Assembly (NCBI RefSeq): GCF_002215035.1
Contig: NZ_NKFP01000004.1
Location: 249,726-313,725, forward strand
Source: Leptolyngbya ohadii IS1
GTDB taxonomy: Bacteria > Cyanobacteriota > Cyanobacteriia > Elainellales > Elainellaceae
Length of the DNA stretch: 64,000 bases
Reading direction: 5' to 3'
This document shows positions 56,808-59,381 of this stretch, piece after piece. Within the stretch, counting starts at the first letter, position 1; every line of letters starts with the position of its first letter. A program made the position numbers and the translations under genes. The notes below the pieces were generated by a model. It was not told the origin of the DNA, did no database searches, and saw nothing but the letters and a program-made list of their open reading frames with translations.

Positions 56808-57272
56808 ATGTTGAGCCTGCCTCCCTTCACGCTTTGGCTATTGCTTGGCTTCCTGTGTTTGATGGCAGGAATGCTGAGCGGTGAACCCAGTGCAGCGGCG
56901 ATCGGTTTAGCAGCTCTGATCACCGGAATTGCTGCCCTCTCCGTTCCCGATGTGGTGACTCAGGTGATTCTCTGGGGAGTGCTGTCGATCGCCCTCATTG
57001 TTGTGCTGCGCGGGATGATGCCCAAGGCGTCGAGCGATCGCGATCGAATTCAGGAAGCGACTGTCACTGAAACGATTCCCAAAGGGGGGATTGGTATGGT
57101 CATTTACGAGGGCGCCCTGTGGCGGGCACGCTGCCAGATTTCCGATGTTGCCATTGCCCCCAAACAAATCGTTCATGTTGTGGGACGACAGGGACTCACG
57201 CTGATGGTGTTGCCGACCACATTTTCTGATGAGTTTGAGGATGTATCCGATCGTCCGAGGATCAGGAGTTAG
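56808..57272 (+). CDS. NfeD-like membrane protein
   Basis: A 154-aa protein with two to three N-terminal transmembrane helices ('LWLLLGFLCLMAGMLSGEPSAAAIGLAALITGIAALSVPDVVTQVILWGVLSIALIVVLRGM'). A small C-terminal OB-fold-like domain follows ('GGIGMVIYEGALWRARCQISDVAIAPKQIVHVVGRQGLTLMVLP'). NfeD proteins assist membrane-protease or stomatin partners; none is adjacent here. This copy looks intact. Pieces of it (56921-57130 direct; 57143-57350 inverted) recur downstream in a scrambled locus. Confidence 0.85.
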   Translation: MLSLPPFTLWLLLGFLCLMAGMLSGEPSAAAIGLAALITGIAALSVPDVVTQVILWGVLSIALIVVLRGMMPKASSDRDRIQEATVTETIPKGGIGMVIYEGALWRARCQISDVAIAPKQIVHVVGRQGLTLMVLPTTFSDEFEDVSDRPRIRS

Positions 57273-57350
57273 GTAAGTGCCCCGCCCCCCTAACCCCCCA
57301 ATCCTGGGGGGAACTGTGTTTCTTACAGCATTTCTGATAACCCGATCGCC
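57143..57350 (+). repeat. source arm of a 208-bp inverted repeat (nfeD 3' end)
   Basis: The reverse complement occurs at 57982-58189. The arms are identical as far as I can read by eye, breaking at 57350/57982 and 57143/58189. Weaker homology continues for about 20 bp beyond 58189. Confidence 0.85.
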
Positions 57351-57424
57351 CAAACTTTCACCCGTCACCATTCAACGCTAAGCTAATCACTGAAATATTT
57401 TCTCCCCCGCTGATGGGCCGTCAC

Positions 57425-57479
57425 CGGATCTTCGTTGGGTTCGATCGTGCCCGCCGGAAACTCCAGCAGTCTCCCCTGC
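57425..57479 (-). repeat. inverted 55-bp fragment of the Nudix gene
   Basis: Reverse complement of 58500-58554, with one mismatch (57473). It carries the coding segment around 'LEFPAGTIEPNED' in the opposite orientation, just ahead of the direct nfeD fragment. Confidence 0.85.
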
Positions 57480-57520
57480 CCCCCAAAAAAAACGTTTCTG
57501 GTGTGGGGGGCAAAAGAAAA

Positions 57521-57730
57521 CACCGGAATTGCTGCCCTCTCCGTTCCCGATGTGGTGACTCAGGTGATTCTCTGGGGAGTGCTGTCGATCGCCCTCATTG
57601 TTGTGCTGCGCGGGATGATGCCCAAGGCGTCGAGCGATCGCGATCGAATTCAGGAAGCGACTGTCACTGAAACGATTCCCAAAGGGGGGATTGGTATGGT
57701 CATTTACGAGGGCGCCCTGTGGCGGGCACG
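57521..57730 (+). repeat. 210-bp direct copy of an internal nfeD segment
   Basis: Identical to 56921-57130 at an exact 600-bp offset. It starts and ends inside the coding sequence. The right end is a 10-bp microhomology, GGCGGGCACG, shared with the Nudix gene at 58524-58533. Confidence 0.9.
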
Positions 57731-57982
57731 ATCGAACCCAACGAAGATCCGTTGACGACCATTCAGCGGGAGATCGAAGAGGAGACGGGCTACCACGCCG
57801 ATCGCTGGCAAACGCTGGGACAGTTCTACCTGGCACCGGGCTATTCCGATGAGATTATCTACGCTTATCTGGCGCAGGATTTGCACAAGCTGGAAACGCC
57901 GCCCCAGCAGGATGAGGACGAAGATATTGAAACGGTGCTGCTGTCTCCCGCTGAGCTAGATCAGGCAATTTTGCAGGGAGAG
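57721..57982 (+). repeat. 262-bp direct copy of the Nudix gene core
   Basis: Matches 58524-58785 at an 803-bp offset. The left junction uses the GGCGGGCACG microhomology shared with nfeD. The right junction continues into the inverted nfeD 3' arm at 57982. Confidence 0.9.
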
Positions 57983-58189
57983 GCGATCGGGTTATCAGAA
58001 ATGCTGTAAGAAACACAGTTCCCCCCAGGATTGGGGGGTTAGGGGGGCGGGGCACTTACCTAACTCCTGATCCTCGGACGATCGGATACATCCTCAAACT
58101 CATCAGAAAATGTGGTCGGCAACACCATCAGCGTGAGTCCCTGTCGTCCCACAACATGAACGATTTGTTTGGGGGCAATGGCAACATCG
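57982..58189 (-). repeat. inverted 208-bp copy of the nfeD 3' region
   Basis: Reverse complement of 57143-57350. It is followed (about 58213-58244) by the reverse complement of nfeD 56902-56930, skipping the middle of the gene. That piece ends at a GCTGCTAAACCGA stretch also present, inverted, at the Nudix gene end. Confidence 0.88.
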
Positions 58190-58233
58190 AAAATCGGGCG
58201 GCGGGCCCGCTGCCGGAATTCCGGTGATCAGAG

Positions 58234-58322
58234 CTGCTAAACCGACAGGAACGGACGCGCCAGAAAATAGCTGCAAATGGATTTGGCATCAAGGCGAAGC
58301 AGTTCTCCTTCCCAGACGATCG
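58234..58322 (-). repeat. inverted 89-bp copy of the Nudix gene 3' end
   Basis: Reverse complement of 58787-58875. It sits exactly where the 5' end of the Nudix gene should be, and joins genuine Nudix coding sequence at a GATCG site. Confidence 0.9.
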
Positions 58323-58416
58323 CCTCCAAGACAAACTCTTCTACCGTGGACGCAAATTCAACTTCGAGGTCACGCGTCTGAAGCTGCCCAATGGGGCGAT
58401 CGGTGACTGGGAATGT

Positions 58417-58872
58417 GTGCGGCATCCGGGCGGGGCGCTGGCGGTTCCCATCACGCCTGAAGGGAAGCTGGTTTTAGTGCGGCAGTATCGCTTTGCGGCG
58501 CAGGGTAGACTGCTGGAGTTTCCGGCGGGCACGATCGAACCCAACGAAGATCCGTTGACGACCATTCAGCGGGAGATCGAAGAGGAGACGGGCTACCACG
58601 CCGATCGCTGGCAAACGCTGGGACAGTTCTACCTGGCACCGGGCTATTCCGATGAGATTATCTACGCTTATCTGGCGCAGGATTTGCACAAGCTGGAAAC
58701 GCCGCCCCAGCAGGATGAGGACGAAGATATTGAAACGGTGCTGCTGTCTCCCGCTGAGCTAGATCAGGCAATTTTGCAGGGAGAGCCGATCGTCTGGGAA
58801 GGAGAACTGCTTCGCCTTGATGCCAAATCCATTTGCAGCTATTTTCTGGCGCGTCCGTTCCTGTCGGTTTAG
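58417..58872 (+). CDS. Nudix hydrolase (ADP-ribose pyrophosphatase-like), 5' end replaced
   Basis: The remaining 151 aa contain a full Nudix box ('GTIEPNEDPLTTIQREIEEETGY') and C-terminus ('CSYFLARPFLSV'). Genuine family sequence continues in frame upstream of the only usual start codon (GTG 58417): 'KLFYRGRKFNFEVTRLKLPNGAIGDWECVRHPGG' from about 58330. Before that, the frame runs into an inverted copy of the gene's own 3' end (58234-58322), with no ATG, GTG or TTG before a stop at 58225. The natural N-terminus (about 40-45 residues) is therefore lost or untranslatable. Function likely impaired; an assembly artefact is possible. Confidence 0.75.
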   Translation: MRHPGGALAVPITPEGKLVLVRQYRFAAQGRLLEFPAGTIEPNEDPLTTIQREIEEETGYHADRWQTLGQFYLAPGYSDEIIYAYLAQDLHKLETPPQQDEDEDIETVLLSPAELDQAILQGEPIVWEGELLRLDAKSICSYFLARPFLSV

Positions 58873-58880
58873 CAGTGCAG

Positions 58881-59381
58881 CTACGTCCGGTCGAAACGCT
58901 TCTCGTACAGAATCTCATAGGGCTGATAGCCCACTTTGCTATAAAAACGGGCTGCGGGTTCATTGCTAGAGAGCAGACTCACTCTAACCACAGTCAAGCC
59001 CAATTCGCGAAAATGCTGTTCTGCTGCTGCCATCAGTGCCGCACCAACTCCGTACTTTCGCAGGGTTGGAATGACATATAGATCTGAGATATAGCCGAAC
59101 GATCGCTCCGATGGGGTAACGTGCCGATCGCCGTCGTCTAGCTTGTCAACAAAGCAAACAACGAAGCCCAGCAGGTCTGCTTGAGATTCCGCCACATAGA
59201 TTCGACCCTGCTGTTTCGCCGCTAATTGCTCCAGGTAGGCAAGGTGGGGGTCAGCGATCTCAGCGCCGATCGTGCGATTGGCACAAAGCTCTCGTTCCGC
59301 TTCCTGAAGCGCCTCCATAAACGAGACGAGAATGGGACGGTCTGCTGCCCTGGCAACACGAACGATAAATTGAGCCGTCAT
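58881..59381 (-). CDS. GNAT family N-acetyltransferase
   Basis: A 166-aa acetyltransferase with unknown substrate. 'IVRVARAADRPILVSFMEALQEAERELCANRTIGAEIADPHLAYLEQLAAKQQGRIYVAES' carries the N-terminal strands; 'ISDLYVIPTLRKYGVGAALMAAAEQHFRELG' carries the acetyl-CoA loop (RKYGVG); 'NEPAARFYSKVGYQPYE' is motif B. Complete and ordinary. It converges on the rearranged Nudix gene, ending 8 bp from its stop. Confidence 0.92.
   Translation of the reverse strand: MTAQFIVRVARAADRPILVSFMEALQEAERELCANRTIGAEIADPHLAYLEQLAAKQQGRIYVAESQADLLGFVVCFVDKLDDGDRHVTPSERSFGYISDLYVIPTLRKYGVGAALMAAAEQHFRELGLTVVRVSLLSSNEPAARFYSKVGYQPYEILYEKRFDRT

What the first reader, a model, noticed from the sequence alone, without database searches (positions are those of the whole stretch)
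56808..58875. Scrambled nfeD-Nudix locus with direct and inverted partial copies joined at microhomologies
Five segments of two neighbouring genes recur. They are 210 bp direct (56921=57521), 262 bp direct (57721=58524), 208 bp inverted (57143-57350 vs 57982-58189), 89 bp inverted (58234-58322 vs 58787-58875) and 55 bp inverted (57425-57479 vs 58500-58554). The visible junctions use short shared sequence: GGCGGGCACG (10 bp), a GCTGCTAAACCGA-like stretch, and GATCG. Near-identity means the event is recent. This pattern fits repeated template switching (fold-back or microhomology-mediated replication), or chimera formation during multiple displacement amplification. If real, it is an unusually dense rearrangement with HIP1-like GATCG as one breakpoint.
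Basis: partly seen in the sequence, partly recalled or inferred. Interest (0 to 1): 0.7.

Follow-up and report, generated by a model that had tools for sequence, protein, structure and literature searches.

The report
Assembly artefact between nfeD and Nudix
The jumbled copies of two neighbouring genes are really in the deposited sequence, but the same kind of jumble recurs across this one genome, is joined at overlaps that are too often exactly ten bases, and cuts an essential gene, so it is almost certainly a genome-assembly mistake and not a biological rearrangement.

Summary
The repeats are in the sequence at the stated coordinates. But this is not one unusual locus. In 1,255 kb sampled from the same assembly (G000) there are 21 such local scrambles, 16 with exact inverted copies. 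In 1,040 kb from three relatives the same scan finds six loci, all direct repeats, none inverted. Seam overlaps pile up at exactly 10 bp (11 of 33; none of 6-8 bp), whereas random local joins share 9 bp or more in under 1 in 10,000. Ten loop-less perfect palindromes of 78-1,020 bp and one of at least 6,954 bp were measured, although sbcD is intact. One scramble removes the start and the first 39 profile positions of the only purH. Here the Nudix gene has lost its start. Best reading: contig joining or gap closing with a minimum overlap of about 10 nt, not template switching in the cell. Separately, nfeD and Nudix are not neighbours in relatives; the junction is one end of an apparent 472-kb inversion whose other end (folK|SPFH) is clean. 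That inversion may be real or a misjoin.

The parts
56808..57272 (+). nfeD gene, complete (154 aa)
   Evidence: ORF; Pfam NfeD; 73% DNA identity to G026 over its length
57273..57402 (.). nfeD 3' flank; carries at 57283-57314 a short hairpin-type repeat found at 40 other listed places in the genome
57403..57487 (-). inverted Nudix piece, partner 58492-58576 (exact core 57425-57472 vs 58507-58554; edges mismatched)
57488..57520 (.). filler that matches nothing nearby
57521..57730 (+). direct copy of nfeD 56921-57130, 100%
57721..57982 (+). direct copy of Nudix 58524-58785, exact; 10-bp overlap GGCGGGCACG with the previous piece
57982..58210 (-). inverted copy of nfeD end and 3' flank 57122-57350 (exact 57982-58189)
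58217..58245 (-). inverted copy of nfeD 56902-56930, exact
58234..58322 (-). inverted copy of the Nudix 3' end 58787-58875, exact; 12-bp overlap CTGCTAAACCGA with the previous piece
58317..58872 (+). Nudix gene body without its usual start codon; 9 extra residues (VWEGELLRL) near the C-terminus absent from the 29 relatives' loci compared

Best explanation
The scramble is an assembly artefact. At a spot that reads covered poorly, an assembler or gap closer extended or joined contig ends drawn from the same neighbourhood, in either orientation, and merged ends that shared about 10 nt or more. This left a chain of direct and inverted partial copies of nfeD and Nudix in place of the true sequence. 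Shown: the copies, the excess of 10-bp overlaps, the genome-wide recurrence, the perfect palindromes, the broken purH. Inferred: the kind of software step. Not known: the sequencing method and program used for this genome.
For: 21 scrambles in 1,255 kb of G000 (16 with inverted copies) against 0 with inverted copies in 1,040 kb of G026, G030 and G029. Overlap lengths at 33 places: 11 exactly 10 bp, three of 9, none of 6-8, against under 1 in 10,000 at 9 bp or more for random local joins. GapFiller, one published gap closer, demands by default an overlap of at least 10 nt (PMC3446322, passages). Loop-less perfect palindromes: where a second copy shows the original centre, it is 10, 10, 10 and 12 bp. 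Palindrome of at least 6,954 bp with sbcD intact. purH, single copy, matches only positions 40-511 where 28 of 36 genomes have it whole, cut by a scramble. Nudix without start here; a 716-aa gene of G026 cut at 514 kb.
Against: No reads, coverage or method are at hand. GapFiller as described would merge once per gap, yet some loci hold two or three 10-bp overlaps, so that exact program is not shown; 7 of 33 overlaps are 5 bp or less. One of the 11 ten-bp cases in our locus (CACCGGAATT) is an overlap of two source pieces at the native place. Scrambles at 509 and 611 kb lie mainly between genes, as selection on real events would also give. No N run was seen in the 540 kb of C4.
Confidence: 0.9

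Rival explanations
1. A real rearrangement: replication-fork template switching (microhomology-mediated) in the cell copied pieces of both flanks while a break was sealed, perhaps at one end of a 472-kb inversion.
For: nfeD-SPFH adjacency (26 of 29 relatives' loci) and folK-Nudix adjacency (19 of 29) are both lost in G000, and SPFH now abuts folK about 472 kb away in the orientation that an inversion predicts, with a clean junction. A second scramble (804 kb) also lies at a gene-order break relative to G026. Copies are exact, hence recent if real.
Against: 10-bp overlap peak; loop-less palindromes up to at least 6,954 bp with sbcD intact; purH truncated; three of the five scrambles compared with G026 lie in collinear sequence; by extrapolation over a hundred events with no divergence would be needed.
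Confidence: 0.04
2. Chimeras made by phi29 polymerase during multiple displacement amplification, carried into the consensus.
For: Inverted and direct local joins with short shared sequence. In the reference study 85% of 475 chimeras were inverted and complementarity ranged up to 21 bp (PMC1855051, passages).
Against: In that study local joins (<10 kb) were 337 inverted to 11 direct; in C4 here 14 of 39 exact pairs are direct. An excess at exactly 10 bp is not expected from annealing (inference; the study's histogram figure was not seen). Nothing shows that this DNA was amplified.
Confidence: 0.06

Closest known systems
Gap-closing and contig-joining errors of read assembly (GapFiller-type minimum overlap of 10 nt, PMC3446322)
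   Same: Ends merged on a short fixed minimum overlap; wrong neighbourhood sequence in either orientation; perfect self-merges at short palindromes
   Different: The program used for this genome is unknown; several 10-bp overlaps per locus exceed the single merge per gap that GapFiller describes
MDA (phi29) chimeras (PMC1855051)
   Same: Local inverted joins with short complementary sequence
   Different: Too many direct copies and an excess of exactly 10-bp overlaps
Microhomology-mediated template-switch scars (MMBIR/FoSTeS; recalled)
   Same: Direct and inverted templated insertions joined at shared short sequence
   Different: Overlap lengths, genome-wide number, palindromes and loss of an essential gene's start do not fit

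Membership tests
Assembly joining/gap-closing artefact | Overlaps at joins reflect a fixed minimum length, not a decaying microhomology distribution | tested here: met
   11 of 33 exactly 10 bp, none of 6-8; random expectation
Assembly joining/gap-closing artefact | Recurs across the assembly and not in relatives | tested here: met
   21 loci in 1,255 kb against no inverted copies in 1,040 kb of three relatives
Assembly joining/gap-closing artefact | Breaks genes the cell needs | tested here: met
   Only purH lacks positions 1-39; essentiality in this organism is inferred
Assembly joining/gap-closing artefact | No reads span the joins | not testable with these tools
   No reads held
Template-switch (MMBIR-type) scar | Templated direct and inverted local copies | tested here: met
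Template-switch (MMBIR-type) scar | Mostly 0 to a few bp of microhomology, decaying with length (recalled) | tested here: not met
   seams without any overlap could not be counted by that method
MDA chimera | Local joins overwhelmingly inverted | tested here: not met
   14 of 39 exact pairs direct in C4 against 11 of 348 local joins in the reference study
MDA chimera | DNA was amplified by phi29 polymerase | not testable with these tools
   No library record; genome unnamed

The most novel reading that the evidence does not exclude
A cyanobacterial lineage that went through a genome-wide burst of template switching needing about 10 nt of annealing, leaving templated inverted insertions and perfect palindromes at over a hundred sites, one of them sealing a 472-kb inversion.
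Probability: 0.03. Interest if true: 0.85.

Novelty: not a real feature. Interest (0 to 1): 0.1.

Why it matters
It warns that in this assembly local duplications, palindromes, truncated genes and perhaps some large gene-order breaks can be false. By extrapolation there may be around 130 such spots, so other findings from this genome that rest on scrambled, split or duplicated genes need reads before belief. Counting overlap lengths at joins is a cheap way to tell such artefacts from template-switch scars when no reads are at hand.

Tried and rejected
A scar of a real inversion was the leading idea: the reciprocal adjacency folK|SPFH is clean and in the right orientation. It was demoted when the same kind of scramble turned up across the assembly, also inside sequence collinear with G026. 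The inversion itself is left open: real, or a misjoin.

Loss of the palindrome-cutting nuclease as a biological reason for stable palindromes: SbcD was tested and is intact. SbcC was not tested.

Substitutions at copy edges that equal a neighbouring base (by eye) hinted at dephased read ends or at dislocation by an error-prone polymerase. The pattern holds at two edges of this locus but not at the 529-kb locus (by eye), so it carries little weight.

The scan of genome contigs returned only distant organisms and did not name the genome. Six literature searches (listings only, apart from passages of three papers) listed no paper whose title or abstract start describes this genome or such scrambles; nothing wider is claimed. 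I recall that the SPAdes gap closer also uses a minimum intersection of 10; no source read confirms it.

Full report
Observation. The window is G000:C4:249726-313725 of a 7.90-Mb, 8-contig assembly. A further 29-bp inverted piece and about 33 bp of unmatched filler lie in the same block. From left to right the block reads: nfeD with its 3' flank; an inverted Nudix piece; filler; a direct nfeD piece; a direct Nudix piece; an inverted nfeD 3' piece; an inverted nfeD 5' piece; an inverted Nudix 3' piece; then Nudix without its start. Nine residues near the Nudix C-terminus (VWEGELLRL) are absent from the 29 relatives' loci compared, and its N-terminus lacks the start seen in relatives. Pfam finds NfeD, NUDIX, a GNAT acetyltransferase and a DUF1400 hydrolase.

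Surroundings. In the one other genome of the genus that is held (G026), hydrolase-nfeD-SPFH lies on one contig and cobQ-folK-Nudix-SH3 on another (cobQ, folK and SPFH are my names from the sequences). Among the family loci fetched, SPFH follows nfeD in 26 of 29 and folK precedes Nudix in 19 of 29 (loci with about 1.5 kb of flank, some cut by contig ends), so both look like old adjacencies. In G000, SPFH and folK abut each other at C4:780,397-780,511 on the other strand. That is what an inversion of about 472 kb would give, with one end clean and the other the scramble. Gene order between G000 and the G026 stretches held is otherwise conserved only in pieces, so a break here is not remarkable by itself.

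Not one locus but many. A scan of 540 kb of C4, chosen because it spans both ends of the apparent inversion, found nine separate scrambles; the first 50.3 kb of the window had none; 640 kb of G026 had no inverted pair. With 20-kb samples every 100 kb from C6 (26 samples) and C1 (10 samples, one holding 5,000 N) the count is 21 loci in 1,255 kb, 16 with inverted copies. The same scan of G026, G030 and G029 (1,040 kb) gave six loci, all direct repeats. A BLAST scan of the same stretches found six weaker inverted pairs (72-90% identity) in G030 and none in G026 or G029. Of the five scrambles compared with G026, two (this one and 804 kb) lie at gene-order breaks and three (509, 514, 611 kb) in collinear sequence.

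Seams. Overlap lengths between neighbouring copied pieces were counted at 20 of the 21 loci (the long palindrome left out): 33 overlaps, of which 11 exactly 10 bp, three of 9, none of 6-8, seven of 5 or fewer, twelve of 11 or more. Five of the 33 lie in short tandem arrays. One of the 11, CACCGGAATT in our locus, is an overlap of two source pieces at the native place. The method sees only overlaps of at least 1 bp. Random local joins give 0-2 bp in about 95% of cases and 9 bp or more in under 1 in 10,000. The 10-mers differ from one another, so a length rule and not a motif is at work. GapFiller states such a rule: two extensions must overlap by at least 10 nt by default (PMC3446322, passages). 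That GapFiller itself was used is not claimed.

Palindromes. Ten loop-less perfect palindromes of 78-1,020 bp were measured, plus one of at least 6,954 bp (L294:13047-20000, i.e. C1:913,046-919,999) that runs to the end of the stretch held. Where a second copy shows the original centre, it is a palindrome of 10, 10, 10 and 12 bp. A strand cannot fold back on itself without a loop, whereas a contig end with a 10-bp palindrome can be merged with its own reverse complement (inference). SbcD, part of the nuclease that attacks long palindromes in E. coli (recalled; the passages seen of PMC3315005, concern mainly an interrupted palindrome), is present with an open frame.

Genes. The scramble at L262:4054-4985 (C6:304,053-304,984) replaces the start of the only purH; its match begins at profile position 40. 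Of 36 family genomes, 28 have purH in one frame from position 1-3 to 511, four have it in two pieces that include the beginning, one from 1 to 478, two have none (69% and 72% complete), and G000 alone has 40-511. A photosynthetic cell that makes its own purines would not be expected to lack this part (inference). The 514-kb scramble cuts a gene that is one 716-aa frame in G026; those at 509 and 611 kb lie mainly between genes. Of ten frames beside other scrambles scanned with Pfam, the purH frame was the clear truncation of a known domain; the others were inconclusive or whole.

Judgement. Recurrence, the length rule at joins, loop-less palindromes and a broken essential gene together make a joining or gap-closing error by far the likeliest cause (0.9). 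The in-cell reading is not excluded without reads but would need a genome-wide burst with an odd 10-nt rule. Whether the 472-kb inversion is real cannot be told here.

Noticed in passing
window 57273-58322 (C4:~307-308 kb) and C4:780,397-780,511 (L066): Apparent 472-kb inversion relative to G026: nfeD|Nudix at one end (scrambled) and folK|SPFH at the other (clean). Real or a misjoin.
   Followed up: partly
L294:13047-20000 (G000 C1:913,046-919,999): Perfect loop-less palindrome of at least 6,954 bp, running off the stretch held.
   Followed up: partly
L262:4054-6391 (G000 C6:~304.0-306.4 kb): The only purH of the genome lacks its first 39 profile positions, replaced by a mosaic with a 78-bp palindrome.
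   Followed up: yes
window 58881-59381: A GNAT acetyltransferase gene sits between Nudix and the SH3-type gene in G000; no match to it lies in the 29 relatives' Nudix loci compared.
   Followed up: no
window 57283-57314 and 58018-58049: Short intergenic hairpin-type repeat (CCCCCTAACCCCCCAATCCTGGGGGG core) listed at 40 other places in G000 (only 40 of 107 candidates scored) and also present in G026.
   Followed up: no
L288:2502-7501 (G000 C1): Run of exactly 5,000 N: a scaffold gap or a withheld stretch.
   Followed up: no
G000 C4:511.98-512.09 kb and 804.6-806.3 kb: Second pair of gene-order breaks relative to G026 (contig C30 split at 43.13-43.15 kb), one end at the 804-kb scramble, the other near the hairpin-type repeat.
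   Followed up: partly
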